Source of the DNA: Modestobacter marinus
GTDB taxonomy: Bacteria; Actinomycetota; Actinomycetes; Mycobacteriales; Geodermatophilaceae
Length of the DNA: 64,000 nucleotides
Assembly: GCF_011758655.1 (NCBI RefSeq)
Contig: NZ_JAAMPA010000002.1
Coordinates: 930,001 to 994,000, forward strand
Direction: 5' to 3'
Positions 27,365 through 32,309 of this stretch are shown here, piece by piece. Under the pieces are notes generated by a model. It worked only from the letters and a program-made list of their open reading frames with translations. It made no database searches and was not told the origin of the DNA. Each line of letters starts with the position of its first letter. The first letter of the stretch is position 1. The translations under genes and the position numbers were made by a program.

Positions 27365-27954
27365 CCGGCACCACCCCCGCCACCCGGATCACCGAGCTGC
27401 CCGCCGGCTGGATGCGCGAGCACCTGCACGAGGCGCTGGCGATCTACGGGGCGGCGATGGGCTACGGCGACTCCGTCGTCGCCGGGCGGTACGGCTACGC
27501 CGTCCAGCACACCGAGCGGGAGGGGTTCCGCGCCGTCGGCGCCTTCGCCGAGGTGCGGCAGGACGACGGCACGGTCGGCGAGCGGCTGGTCGGCTTCGGC
27601 TACGGCTACGTCGTCGCCCCCGGCCAGTGGTGGCACGACCAGGTCCGCAACGCCCTGGACCGCCGGACGGCGAAGCAGTGGCTGCCCGGCGCGTTCGAGG
27701 TGTGCGAGCTGCACGTGCACCCCGACCGGCAGAGCCAGGGCCTCGGCCGACAGCTGCTGCACGCGCTGCTGGCCGACCTCCCCCAGCCGGCCGCCCTGCT
27801 GAGCACCCCGGACACCGACACCAAGGCCTTCCGGCTGTACCACGCCGACGGGTTCGTCGACCTGGCCCGCGGCTACCACTTCCCCGGCGACGCCCGTCCC
27901 TTCGCCATCCTGGGCGCGCGCCTGCCGCTCACCCGCCCGGCTGGGAAGGGCTGA
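27361..27954 (+). CDS. GNAT family N-acetyltransferase
   Basis: The product has 197 residues. The acetyl-CoA-binding motif A appears as VCELHVHPDRQSQGLGRQLLHALLADL, where QSQGLG is the pyrophosphate loop. TKAFRLYHADGFVDLARGYHFPG is the C-terminal GNAT signature. The N-terminal half (YGYAVQHTEREGFRAVGAF) is less typical. The acceptor is unknown. It overlaps both ybaK and the following oxidoreductase, so it is probably translated from the same mRNA. Confidence 0.85.
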   Translation: MTGTTPATRITELPAGWMREHLHEALAIYGAAMGYGDSVVAGRYGYAVQHTEREGFRAVGAFAEVRQDDGTVGERLVGFGYGYVVAPGQWWHDQVRNALDRRTAKQWLPGAFEVCELHVHPDRQSQGLGRQLLHALLADLPQPAALLSTPDTDTKAFRLYHADGFVDLARGYHFPGDARPFAILGARLPLTRPAGKG

Positions 27955-29612
27955 TCACCGTCGACAGCACCGCGGACGTCGTCGTCATCGGCTCCGGGCA
28001 CAACGGGCTCGTCGCCGCCTGCCACCTGGCCCGGGCCGGGCTGCGGGTGGAGGTGGTGGAGTCCGACGAGGTGCTCGGCGGTGCCGTCTCCACCGTCGAG
28101 CGCTGGCCCGGCGTCCGGGTCGACCGCGGGTCCAGCGCCCACGTGATCATCCGGCACAGCGGGGTGGTCGAGGAGCTGGAGCTCGAGCGCTTCGGCCTCC
28201 GCTACGTCGACTGCGACCCCTGGGGGTTCGCCCCCGCACCGGTGCCCGGCGACCCCGGTCCCGACGGCCGGCCGCTGGTCTTCTCCGTCGACCTCGACGC
28301 CACCTGCGCCTCCATCGCCGCCGCCTGCGGGGACGCCGACGCCGCGGCCTACCGCCGGTTCGTCGAGGTGTGGGGGCCGCGCAGCGCCGCCGTCGTCCGT
28401 GCCTTCGGCGACCGGCCGGCGATGACCCGGCTGGTCCGGCACCTGTGGCCGGTCGGCGCCCCCCGGCGCGGCCAGCCGCGCACCCCGGGCGGGGAGATCG
28501 CCACCGACTTCCTCGGCTCCGGCGACGCCCTGCTCGACCGCTGGTTCACCAGCGAACGGCTCAAGGCCGCCCTCGCCTGGTTCGGCGCCCAGTCCGGGCC
28601 CCCCATGTCCGAGCCCGGCACGGCGGCGATGGTCGGCTGGGTGGCGCTGCTGCACGACGTCCCGCCCGGCCACCCGGTCGGCGGCTCGGGCGGGCTCACC
28701 CAGGCACTGGCCGCCCGGCTGGCCAGTGACGGCGGCCGGGTCACCCTCGGGGACGGCGCGGCCCGCCTCCTCGTCGACGGGCCGCCCGACGACCGGCGGG
28801 TCACCGGGGTGCAGACCGTCTCCGGGCGGCGGATCACCGCACCGGTGGTCGTCGCCGCCTGCCACGTGCTGGCCACCCGGGCGCTGGCCGGCGACGACGC
28901 CCCGCCCGCACTGGCCGAGGCCGACCCGCCGCTGGGCAACGGCTTCGGCCTGGTGCTGCGCTGCCAGACCGACGCCCTGCCGAACTACCCCGGCGCGGGC
29001 GAGGAGGCGCTGCAGGGCCTGCAGCTGCTCTGCACCGACCGGGCCCAGCTGGCCCGGGCGCACGGCGACTGGCTGGCCGGCGAGCTGCCCCGGGAGCCGG
29101 TCCCGCTGGCCATGTCCTTCTCCGCGAGCGACCCGACCCTGGCCCCGGCCGGCCAGCACGTGGTCACCATCTGGGGGCAGTGGTACCCCTACGAGCTCGC
29201 CGACGGGTCGGACTGGGCGGAGATCGCCGACCGGGCCGCCCAGCAGCTGATCGCCGCGGTCGACCGGTACGCACCCGGCTTCGGCGACTCGGTACAGCGG
29301 CTGTACGTGCAGACCCCGCTGAAGCTGGAGCAGGAACTGTCCCTGCTGCGTGGCAACGTCATGCACGTGGAGATGAGCCTGGCCAGCATGTTCGGCTTCC
29401 GGCCGACCCCGGCGCTGTCCGGTCACCGGGTGCCGGGGCTGGGCGGGCTGTACCTCACCGGCGCCTCCACGCACCCCGGAGGCGGGGTCTCCGGCAACTC
29501 CGGCCGCACCGCCGCCCGGGTGGTGCTGGCCGACCGCCGGCCGGCCGCCCGGCTGCGGGCCCGGCTGACGGGCGGTGCCGGGCGTCTCGCGCGCCGGAGG
29601 ACGGCGGGGTGA
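27951..29612 (+). CDS. Phytoene-desaturase-like FAD-dependent oxidoreductase
   Basis: About 553 residues. The dinucleotide fold is TADVVVIGSGHNGLVAACHLARAGLRVEVVE, and the C-terminal GLYLTGASTHPGGGVSGNSGRTAARVVL is the FAD signature of CrtI-like enzymes. It shows the PYROXD2-type length and layout. Followed by cruF and a GT2 gene, it probably desaturates or oxidises a carotenoid end. No ATG, GTG or TTG lies near the homology start. The only candidate is CTG at 27951, overlapping the GNAT stop as CTGA, so the start is uncertain. Confidence 0.82.
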   Translation: MITVDSTADVVVIGSGHNGLVAACHLARAGLRVEVVESDEVLGGAVSTVERWPGVRVDRGSSAHVIIRHSGVVEELELERFGLRYVDCDPWGFAPAPVPGDPGPDGRPLVFSVDLDATCASIAAACGDADAAAYRRFVEVWGPRSAAVVRAFGDRPAMTRLVRHLWPVGAPRRGQPRTPGGEIATDFLGSGDALLDRWFTSERLKAALAWFGAQSGPPMSEPGTAAMVGWVALLHDVPPGHPVGGSGGLTQALAARLASDGGRVTLGDGAARLLVDGPPDDRRVTGVQTVSGRRITAPVVVAACHVLATRALAGDDAPPALAEADPPLGNGFGLVLRCQTDALPNYPGAGEEALQGLQLLCTDRAQLARAHGDWLAGELPREPVPLAMSFSASDPTLAPAGQHVVTIWGQWYPYELADGSDWAEIADRAAQQLIAAVDRYAPGFGDSVQRLYVQTPLKLEQELSLLRGNVMHVEMSLASMFGFRPTPALSGHRVPGLGGLYLTGASTHPGGGVSGNSGRTAARVVLADRRPAARLRARLTGGAGRLARRRTAG

Positions 29613-30427: not shown

Positions 30428-31644
30428 GCGCGGCCTGGCGCCGGCTCCTGCGGGTGTGCGCCGGGCTGTCCGTGGTCGCCGCCGTCCACGCCGCGCTGAA
30501 CAGCCGGCTCCTCCGCCGGCCACCGGCCCTGCCCCGGCCGGTCGCCCGGCGGGTGACCGTGGTGGTCCCGGCACGCGACGAGGCCGACCAGATCGAGGGC
30601 TGCCTGGCCGCCGTGCTCGACCAGCGCGGGGTGCCCGGCCTGCGGGTCGTGGTCGTCGACGACGGCTCCACCGACGACACCGCCGCGCGCGTGGTGGGCG
30701 TGGCCGATCCGCGGGTGACGTTGCTGCCCGCCATCCCGCCCGGGCCGGGCTGGCTCGGCAAGCCGAACGCGTGCGCCCAAGGCGCCGCTGCCGCTCACCG
30801 GGCGCCCTCGGACGGCCGGGCACCCTCGGACCACCAGGCGACCACCGACGACCGGGCGACCACCGACGACGTGCTGGTGTTCCTGGACGCCGACGTCCGG
30901 CTGATGCCCGACGCGATCGCCTCCGCGGTCGCCCTGCTCGACGACGCGGCACTCGACCTGGTCTCCCCCTGGCCGCGGCAGCTCACCGGCAGCGCGGCCG
31001 AGCGGCTGGTCCAGCCGCTGCAGCAGTGGCTGTGGGCCACCCTCCTGCCGCTGCGGCTGGCCGAGCGGTCACCACGACCGTCGCTGGCGGCGGCCAACGG
31101 CCAGTTCCTGGTGGTCCGCCGGGCCGCCTACGACCGGGCCGGCGGGCACGGCGCCGTGCGCGGTGAGGTGATCGAGGACGTCGCACTGCTGCGCGCGGTC
31201 AAGGCCGCCGGGGGCCGGGGCGTCGTCGTCGACGGGTCGACGCTGGCCGCCTGCCGGATGTACGACGGCTGGCCGGGGGTCCGGGACGGCTACACGAAGT
31301 CGCTGTGGTCGGCGGTCGGCGGTCACCCGGCGGCGGCCGCCGGTGTCGCCGCCGGGCTCAGCGCCGTCTGGCTGCTGCCGCCGCTGGCCGCGCTGACCGG
31401 CTCCCGCGCCGGCCTGGTCGGCTACGCCGCCGGGGTGGTCAACCGGGCCGTGGTCGCGACCCGCACGGGCGGCCGGGCCTGGCCGGACTCCCTGGCGCAT
31501 CCGGTGTCGATCGCGCTGCTCGACGTGCTGGTCGCCCGCTCGGTGGCCGGTCACCGGAACGGGTCGCTCCGGTGGCGCGGGCGCGCCCTCTCCCCCGCCG
31601 CCGCCCAGCGGGCCGACCTCCCAGCACCCATCCTGGGCAGATGA
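30424..31644 (+). CDS. GT2 family glycosyltransferase
   Basis: The product has 406 residues. One N-terminal hydrophobic segment precedes a GT-A domain with VTVVVPARDEADQIEGCLAAVL, VVVVDDGSTDDT, the DxD-like VLVFLDADVRL, and an acceptor region with EDVALLRAVKAAGG. Membrane helices follow near the C-terminus. Coupled to cruF, it probably glycosylates a hydroxylated carotenoid (CruC-like role), by inference. A short insertion at about residues 122-145 consists of two duplications (APSDGRAPSD and ATTDDRATTDD) and looks like a surface loop. Confidence 0.82.
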   Translation: MSAAWRRLLRVCAGLSVVAAVHAALNSRLLRRPPALPRPVARRVTVVVPARDEADQIEGCLAAVLDQRGVPGLRVVVVDDGSTDDTAARVVGVADPRVTLLPAIPPGPGWLGKPNACAQGAAAAHRAPSDGRAPSDHQATTDDRATTDDVLVFLDADVRLMPDAIASAVALLDDAALDLVSPWPRQLTGSAAERLVQPLQQWLWATLLPLRLAERSPRPSLAAANGQFLVVRRAAYDRAGGHGAVRGEVIEDVALLRAVKAAGGRGVVVDGSTLAACRMYDGWPGVRDGYTKSLWSAVGGHPAAAAGVAAGLSAVWLLPPLAALTGSRAGLVGYAAGVVNRAVVATRTGGRAWPDSLAHPVSIALLDVLVARSVAGHRNGSLRWRGRALSPAAAQRADLPAPILGR

Positions 31645-32309
31645 CCAGCAGCGACCTCCTCAGCCTGCGCACCGACGAGCGCGCCGCACTCCTCTTCGTC
31701 GGGTTGCGCGGCGACTGGTAGCCCTACTGCTGCGCCCAGGCGGTCCGCCTGGCCCGGTCCCTGTCCCGCATCTCCGCCGCCGGCGCCGAGGTGGTGCTCG
31801 CCTCGGTCGATCCCCCCGAGGTGCAGCTGGCCATGGACCGCACCTGGCACCTGCCCTTCCGGTGGGCCAGCGACCCGGGCGGCACCCGGCTGGCCCAGCC
31901 CCTGGACGCCTGGGACACCGAGGCCTCGATCTTCCGGCCGGTCGTCATCGTGGTCGCCCCGGACGGCCGCGAGGTGTTCCGCGAACTGTCCCGGGACTTC
32001 ACCGACCGCACCGACGACGAGCCGGTGCTGACCGCCATCGAGGCCCTGGGGCTCCCCGCGCTCCCCGAGCCGGCCCCCTGGGCGCCCGAGGGCGTGGTCC
32101 CGCACCCGTCGAAGCGCGTGTTCACGCCCAGCTCCTTCATCCCCTACTTCCGCGCGATCCGGTTCAACACGATGGCGCTGAGCCAGCGGATGGTCGACGA
32201 GCGGGACCGCGACCAGCTGGTCACCGAGCAGCGGATGGCCGAGTCCTTCCTCGCCACCTTCGACGAGTGGCGGGCCGAGCACCCGCCGGGCGACCAGGCC
32301 CGGGTCTGA
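31641..32309 (+). CDS. Peroxiredoxin-like selenoprotein with in-frame UAG (probable Sec27)
   Basis: This 222-residue thioredoxin-fold protein belongs to the AhpC/TSA-like redoxins. Residues 1-26 end LLFVGLRGDW; codon 27 is TAG (31719-31721); then PYCCAQAVRLARSL continues. In relatives this position is the catalytic Cys of an FxRGxWCPYC motif, so the TAG sits exactly at the redox residue, giving UPYC. Codon use is GC3-rich and homology continuous on both sides. The ATG overlaps the GT2 stop (ATGA), and a SECIS-like hairpin follows. Geodermatophilaceae are known to decode UAG as selenocysteine. A pseudogene is the alternative, but less likely. Confidence 0.85.
31719..31721 (+). other. In-frame TAG, proposed selenocysteine codon
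   Basis: Codon 27 of the redoxin gene at 31641. It replaces the first Cys of a W-C-P-Y-C active site. TGC would need two base changes to become TAG, so simple point mutation is a poor explanation. Normal genes here (ending at 13166, 42865, 42899 and 48923) also stop with TAG, so meaning must depend on context. Confidence 0.82.
31736..31752 (+). promoter_or_regulatory. SECIS-like hairpin
   Basis: CCAGGCGGTCCGCCTGG folds into a perfect 7-bp stem with loop GUC (or CGGUCC if the top pairs open). It starts 14 bases after the TAG. E. coli fdhF SECIS has AGGUCU in its loop, with the SelB-contacted GU at nearly the same distance from the Sec codon (within two bases). The shared GGUC loop and spacing fit a bacterial SECIS. 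Confidence 0.75.

What the first reader, a model, noticed from the sequence alone, without database searches (positions are those of the whole stretch)
31641..32309. UAG-encoded selenocysteine in a peroxiredoxin-like protein
An ATG-initiated frame, coupled to the upstream stop (ATGA), meets TAG at codon 27 and then continues for 195 codons. GC3-rich codons and clear redoxin homology run on both sides. The TAG falls exactly at the catalytic Cys of the family's RGxWCPYC motif, giving W-U-P-Y-C. TGC to TAG needs two substitutions, and no other frameshift or stop is present. UAG-programmed selenoprotein synthesis has been reported in Geodermatophilus and Blastococcus (work on variant tRNA-Sec by Mukai and colleagues, 2016), and this genome looks like that family. 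An automatic annotation would miss the first 50 residues or call a pseudogene.
Basis: partly seen in the sequence, partly recalled or inferred. Interest (0 to 1): 0.95.

Follow-up and report, generated by a model that had tools for sequence, protein, structure and literature searches.

The report
UAG-encoded selenocysteine in a peroxiredoxin-like protein
In a bacterium that is likely a Modestobacter, a gene for a protein predicted to fold like a peroxiredoxin carries the stop codon UAG exactly where relatives in other bacterial lineages carry UGA or a cysteine codon, and its genome holds a selenocysteine-type tRNA gene that matches UAG, so the cell would insert selenocysteine there; a gene that is probably the same one was already reported from the related genus Blastococcus.

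Summary
Frame 31641-32309 is open except for one TAG (codon 27) in RGDW-U-PYC. The genome has selA, selB, selD and a tRNA-Sec gene with anticodon CUA. Strong matches occur in 30 of 112 Geodermatophilaceae genomes: all 30 have TAG at codon 27, and the tRNA-Sec read in each is CUA. Outside the family the codon was TGA in 45, TGC in 3 and unread in 8 of 56 loci; the 18 genomes where both were read pair TGA with UCA. The 28 intact TAG genes form one clade (100/100). A hairpin directly after the UAG shows compensatory changes (in chosen sequences) and the gene's strongest synonymous constraint. A second UAG gene, a formate dehydrogenase, lies in the same genome. UAG-selenocysteine in this family, with an AhpC in Blastococcus saxobsidens DD2 that is most probably this gene, is published (PMC5330540), so this is a new member of a known kind. 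Nuance: Sec27 sits where classical peroxiredoxins have Thr/Ser, so a UxxC redox pair is likelier than Sec as peroxidatic residue. Selenium incorporation was not shown.

The parts
31641..32309 (+). Selenoprotein gene, 222 residues with UAG read as Sec; AhpC/TSA family
   Evidence: Pfam PF00578 43.5 bits against a cut-off of 26, computed with Cys in place of Sec
31719..31721 (+). In-frame UAG, codon 27, predicted to be read as selenocysteine
   Evidence: TAG in 30 of 30 strong family matches; TGA in 45, TGC in 3 and unread in 8 of 56 loci outside the family
31719..31730 (+). Codons of the U-P-Y-C redox motif (Sec27, Cys30)
   Evidence: Sequence; aligned with WCGHC of protein disulfide isomerase and with (T/S)xxC of three peroxiredoxins, all weak matches
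31736..31752 (+). Predicted SECIS hairpin: 6-bp stem (31736-31741 with 31747-31752) and loop GGUCC
   Evidence: 60 of 60 cells paired and 3 of 6 pairs with changes on both sides in 10 chosen sequences; synonymous constraint peak; hairpin alone z -2.06, wider segment z -0.81
31641..31718 (+). Codons 1-26, missing from the listed database versions of the protein
   Evidence: Aligned without stops in 28 intact orthologues; the 32 of 120 listed homologues that were aligned lack the stretch up to the motif
31791..32309 (+). 172-aa frame from GTG that automatic annotation would call instead
   Evidence: 172-aa database entries P0003, P0004, P0006

Best explanation
The frame at 31641-32309 is interrupted only by a UAG at codon 27, and this UAG is most likely read as selenocysteine by the genome's CUA-anticodon tRNA-Sec, delivered by SelB that would recognise the hairpin directly after the codon. 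Shown by sequence: the interrupted frame, the UAG codon, the CUA tRNA-Sec gene, selA, selB and selD, the hairpin-forming sequence, TGA or TGC at the same codon in homologues outside the family, and a second UAG gene (formate dehydrogenase). Inferred: charging with selenium, SelB binding, competition with termination, and the full-length product. Inferred chemistry: Sec27 and Cys30 form a UxxC redox pair on a peroxiredoxin fold, so the protein would reduce peroxides or disulfides. UAG is still found as the last codon of genes in this lineage (14 of the 28 intact orthologues of this very gene end with UAG; the window copy ends with UGA), so the meaning would be set by the hairpin and not by a genome-wide change of code.
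For: Machinery: tRNA-Sec 65.8 bits, cut-off 47, anticodon CTA at G000:C3:284342-284433; selA 411.7 bits, cut-off 267.9, selB 273.1, cut-off 242.25, selD 387.1, cut-off 125. Codon conservation: 30 of 30 strong family matches TAG, and the tRNA-Sec read in each of the 30 genomes is CUA. Outside the family 45 TGA, 3 TGC, 8 unread of 56 loci; 18 of 18 genomes with both read pair TGA with UCA. The 28 TAG rows form one clade, 100/100. RNA element: the 12 windows of 12 codons with the highest z for synonymous conservation all start at codons 26-37, z up to 23.5 against a median of 6.0; compensatory changes. Second UAG gene: formate dehydrogenase with TAG, aligned to the residue printed X in solved selenocysteine formate dehydrogenase 6sdr and followed by a stem with a GGUC loop (by eye). 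14 of 28 intact orthologues end with TAG. Fold: pLDDT 92.9; highest Z in the second look is M. tuberculosis AhpE, 17.2, rmsd 2.1 over 134 residues.
Against: No protein or selenium data. Two of 30 family orthologues are frameshifted just after the UAG. The wider 45-nt segment after the UAG folds no better than shuffles (z -0.81; 39 of 200 as good), only the 21-nt hairpin does (z -2.06; 4 of 200). The stem barely varies among the TAG genes themselves, so its covariation rests on six of 45 TGA relatives, chosen for the same PYCC motif. 80 of 112 family genomes gave no match to this gene, so it is dispensable. Release factor 1 and the pyrrolysine genes were not searched for.
Confidence: 0.95

Rival explanations
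1. Decayed gene: the UAG is a real stop and only a shorter internal-start protein, or nothing, is made.
For: The listed database entries are shorter forms without the motif; 2 of 30 family orthologues have a frameshift near the UAG.
Against: Same codon in 30 of 30 loci across five genus groups; 28 of 30 otherwise open; codons 1-26 and the motif align in all 28; dN/dS of the last 180 codons was 0.22-0.45 in six intact pairs and 0.24-0.45 in ten pairs with a frameshifted copy; TGA or TGC at the same codon outside the family.
Confidence: 0.03
2. Another amino acid is inserted at UAG, for example pyrrolysine or serine through a suppressor tRNA.
For: ARAGORN labels the CUA tRNA as tRNA-Pyl.
Against: The gene matches the tRNA-Sec model over its full length at 65.8 bits, above the cut-off of 47, and is listed as the best family of its clan there. 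UCA and CUA forms in the family are alike along the rest of the gene (by eye). The aligned residue is Cys or UGA-encoded in relatives. selA, selB and selD are present. pylS was not searched for.
Confidence: 0.01
3. Selenocysteine is inserted, but the protein is a classical peroxiredoxin with Sec as the peroxidatic residue.
For: Peroxiredoxins fill the listed fold matches; Pfam AhpC/TSA.
Against: Of the five profile alignments shown three are peroxiredoxins (E 0.003-0.01); in these position 27 faces Ser or Thr and Cys30 faces the conserved Cys. A published table gives TxxU for selenocysteine peroxiredoxin and UxxC for the Prx-like oxidoreductase (PMC13188914, passages).
Confidence: 0.2

Closest known systems
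AhpC selenoprotein with Sec-TAG in Blastococcus saxobsidens DD2 (PMC5330540; section 17 read in full, figure legend and others seen as passages)
   Same: AhpC/TSA family, TAG at the Sec site, CUA tRNA-Sec, predicted bacterial SECIS. Genome G009 has a contig of 4,875,340 bases, the length listed for a B. saxobsidens DD2 protein (P0045). Of 13 AhpC/TSA matches in G009 one has an internal TAG, and it lies in the orthologue of this gene.
   Different: Other genus; 77% identical protein. That the published gene is this orthologue is inferred from the contig length and the single TAG hit.
UAG-decoding selenocysteine system of Geodermatophilaceae (Mukai et al. 2016, 10.1002/anie.201511657; not held; known here only through papers that cite it)
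   Same: CUA tRNA-Sec and UAG formate dehydrogenase in the same family of bacteria (as told in PMC5330540).
   Different: Here the tRNA was read in 108 of 112 family genomes: 100 CUA, 7 UCA, 1 both.
Prx-like thiol:disulfide oxidoreductase selenoprotein family, PF00578, UxxC/UxxU (PMC13188914 and PMC9312934, passages)
   Same: PF00578 and a UxxC motif.
   Different: No sequence comparison with that family's reference protein was made; the Sec codon here is UAG and not UGA.

Membership tests
UAG-decoding selenocysteine system | tRNA-Sec with anticodon CUA in the genome | tested here: met
UAG-decoding selenocysteine system | selA, selB and selD present | tested here: met
   All above curated cut-offs
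UAG-decoding selenocysteine system | TAG conserved at a site that is TGA or Cys in relatives | tested here: met
   30 of 30 TAG in family; 45 TGA, 3 TGC, 8 unread of 56 outside
UAG-decoding selenocysteine system | SECIS-like hairpin just 3' of the codon | tested here: met
   Predicted stem with compensatory changes in 10 chosen sequences and synonymous constraint; folding energy weak; SelB binding not testable here
UAG-decoding selenocysteine system | Selenium in the protein product | not testable with these tools
   Needs 75Se labelling or mass spectrometry
Prx-like thiol:disulfide oxidoreductase (PF00578, UxxC) | Match to PF00578 above its cut-off | tested here: met
   43.5 bits, cut-off 26, with Cys for Sec
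Prx-like thiol:disulfide oxidoreductase (PF00578, UxxC) | UxxC motif | tested here: met
   U27-P-Y-C30
Prx-like thiol:disulfide oxidoreductase (PF00578, UxxC) | Thiol:disulfide exchange or peroxide reduction | not testable with these tools
   Needs purified selenoprotein
Classical peroxiredoxin (AhpC, AhpE, Prx) | Peroxiredoxin fold | tested here: met
Classical peroxiredoxin (AhpC, AhpE, Prx) | (T/S)xxC with Thr or Ser three residues before the peroxidatic residue | tested here: not met
   Position 27 is the UAG codon and aligns with Ser or Thr of three solved peroxiredoxins
Pyrrolysine decoding | pylS and a Pyl-type tRNA | not tested
   ARAGORN prints tRNA-Pyl for the CUA tRNA, but the Rfam match is tRNA-Sec; pylS not searched

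The most novel reading that the evidence does not exclude
The ancestor of most living Geodermatophilaceae moved its whole selenocysteine system from UGA to UAG in one step, anticodon, stem pair and selenoprotein genes together, while UAG stayed a normal stop, even within the same messenger RNA. A descendant (G059) has since picked up a UGA-reading tRNA-Sec with a UGA-containing candidate gene on a mobile island, and so reads two stop codons as selenocysteine with a single SelB.
Probability: 0.3. Interest if true: 0.7.

Novelty: new member of a known kind. Interest (0 to 1): 0.42.

Why it matters
It adds a clear case, with strong comparative evidence, that the selenocysteine codon can move between stop codons as long as tRNA and genes move together. 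The family offers a natural before-and-after set: genomes with a UCA tRNA-Sec, many with CUA, and one with both. For annotation, what the listed database entries hold for this gene is a fragment without its active site.

Tried and rejected
Pseudogene and sequencing error were considered and rejected for the window gene, because 28 of 30 orthologues are intact with the same TAG. Pyrrolysine was considered because ARAGORN prints tRNA-Pyl; the full-length tRNA-Sec match and the TGA or Cys codons of relatives argue against it, but pylS was not searched.

A fold of the 45-nt stretch after the UAG gave no better energy than shuffles (z -0.81), so the SECIS claim rests on constraint and covariation and not on energy. 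A profile search of the PDB at E 0.001 found nothing; at E 10 it gave the weak alignments used here. The scan of genome contigs found only Geodermatophilaceae (24 loci), because its patterns came from the part after the motif; the profile scans of genomes then found the TGA relatives. Gene neighbours were checked within 3 kb in the 24 named loci: the upstream glycosyltransferase and the downstream flavin reductase each had a match in 7 of 24 and the carotenoid ketolase in 6 of 24, all titled Modestobacter, so context gives no functional clue; a fourth query in that script (PfkB) was cut badly, matched 0 of 24, and means nothing. NCBIfam had no family for the protein. Papers: Mukai 2016 could not be read; no paper in the library holds both Modestobacter and selenocysteine.

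Full report
Observation. The window is G000:C2:930001-994000 of a 5.1-Mb genome. Frame 31641-32309 begins with an ATG that overlaps the upstream stop (ATGA) and is open for 222 residues except for one TAG at codon 27, in the context RGDW-U-PYCC. Pfam AhpC/TSA matches residues 17-109 at 43.5 bits with Cys set for Sec. ARAGORN finds no tRNA in the window. The genome is likely a Modestobacter: its genus group includes G103, whose contig length equals that of Modestobacter sp. VKM Ac-2977, and the two proteins are 91% identical.

Machinery. In the same genome: a tRNA-Sec gene at C3:284342-284433, 65.8 bits against a cut-off of 47, with anticodon CTA; selD at C3:283265-284173, minus strand; selA at C3:292279-293544; selB, matched over C3:293598-294617. 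Four places in this genome match the tRNA-Sec model at E 0.001 or better; ARAGORN names the other three tRNA-Ser.

A second UAG gene. The genome has a formate dehydrogenase frame with one internal TAG, in NQARI-U-HSATVPGLG. In the alignment to solved selenocysteine formate dehydrogenases that position faces the residue printed as X in 6sdr, or C in 9qm0, in the same context. The TAG is followed by a stem closed by a GGUC loop (by eye); the loop of the window gene is GGUCC.

Family survey. Of 112 family genomes searched, 32 matched the protein. Two of these matches are weak (28 and 35% identity). The other 30 carry TAG at codon 27; 28 are intact and 2 (G104, G029) have a one-base deletion shortly after the TAG. 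The 24 loci with named records (some are the same genomes) also all have TAG, the two frameshifted ones included. tRNA-Sec anticodons were read for one gene per genome, two in G059 and G037: of 112 genomes 108 were read, 100 CUA, 7 UCA (genus groups g6, g7, g8) and 1 both (G059). In the four others (G068, G072, G097, G098; 72-82% complete) none was read: one fetched hit did not fit the script's pattern, the rest had only weaker matches that I did not fetch. The tRNA-Sec read in each of the 30 genomes with the gene is CUA. Lower-scoring matches in the other genomes were not read. 80 of 112 genomes gave no match to the protein.

Outside the family. Scans of 396 genomes of the phylum and 395 of the class of G142 gave matches in 53 and 69 genomes; loci were kept for the best ones, and the weakest matches were not examined. 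56 loci were held. A motif scan read the codon in 48: TGA 45, TGC 3; 8 were not read. In 20 of these genomes I searched for tRNA-Sec: 19 have UCA, one (G829) gave none. For 18 of the 20 both codon and anticodon were read, and all 18 pair TGA with UCA. In a tree of 76 proteins (28 TAG, 45 TGA, 3 TGC; the 2 frameshifted and 8 unread loci left out) the 28 TAG rows form one clade with support 100/100, next to TGA rows with the same PYCC motif. The tree warns of long branches meeting, and its root is a midpoint.

RNA element. Among 28 intact genes the 12 windows of 12 codons with the highest z for synonymous conservation all start at codons 26-37, z up to 23.5; the median window has z 6.0, because related sequences share codons anyway. 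The stem 31736-31741 with 31747-31752 was counted on ten sequences that I chose (4 of 28 TAG, 6 of 45 TGA, all with the PYCC motif): 60 of 60 cells pair, 3 of 6 pairs change on both sides, and no slid version pairs above 50%. Against 500 shuffles the number of such pairs is not exceptional (58 reach it), the cells paired and the covariation score are (0 reach them). Among the 28 TAG genes the stem itself shows one change only, to a G-U pair, so covariation comes from the TGA relatives. The other TGA group, with PYCNGQLV, has a GGUC or AGUU loop in a slightly different register (by eye, not counted). Folding energy is weak evidence: z -2.06 for 21 nt, z -0.81 for 45 nt.

UAG remains a last codon. 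14 of the 28 intact orthologues end in TAG and 14 in TGA. In those 14 the same message would carry one UAG as Sec and one as stop.

Known or new. PMC5330540 (section 17 in full, other passages) states that UAG-Sec with CUA tRNA-Sec occurs in Geodermatophilaceae, citing earlier work, and adds an AhpC with Sec-TAG in Blastococcus saxobsidens DD2. So this finding is a new member of a known kind. In the passages that I saw there was no family-wide pairing of codon and anticodon, no UCA genomes inside the family, and no genome with both tRNAs; Mukai 2016 could not be read, and most subscription journals are not held.

Results against. No selenium data; two frameshifted copies with normal constraint downstream (dN/dS 0.24-0.45); weak folding energy; stem almost invariant within the family; release factor 1 and pyrrolysine genes not searched.

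Noticed in passing
L036 (G059:C17:1173-1263) and L115 (G059:C11): One Geodermatophilaceae genome has two tRNA-Sec genes, UCA (81.8 bits) and CUA (65.3 bits), but one selB over the cut-off, near the CUA gene. The UCA gene lies in a stretch of about 60% G+C near the end of a 69-kb contig, with transposase-like frames nearby (that label is mine from the translations).
   Followed up: partly
L167:1579-2169: About 300 bases from that UCA tRNA-Sec, a CMD/AhpD-like frame (PF02627) reads NRCFY-TGA-MESH. Of four homologues looked at (of 120 listed), two have Cys and two Trp at that place, so UGA-Sec is possible but not shown.
   Followed up: partly
L037-L042, L045: Seven draft genomes (76-98% complete) of three genus groups in the same family have a UCA tRNA-Sec; UCA and CUA forms differ at the anticodon and also in one anticodon-stem pair (U-A against C-G).
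   Followed up: partly
L181:2972 and L195:2972: Modestobacter sp. DSM 44400 and Blastococcus sp. CT_GayMR19 share a one-base deletion on the 5' side of the hairpin after the TAG; the downstream frame is open and under normal constraint.
   Followed up: partly
L164 (G000:C1:886246-886986, minus strand): Formate dehydrogenase gene of the window's genome with UAG at the Sec position and a GGUC-loop hairpin after it.
   Followed up: yes
window 27945-29609 and 30535-31644: A CrtO-like carotenoid ketolase (below its curated cut-off) and a family-2 glycosyltransferase lie upstream of the gene; matches to them near the gene were only in loci titled Modestobacter (6 and 7 of 24).
   Followed up: partly
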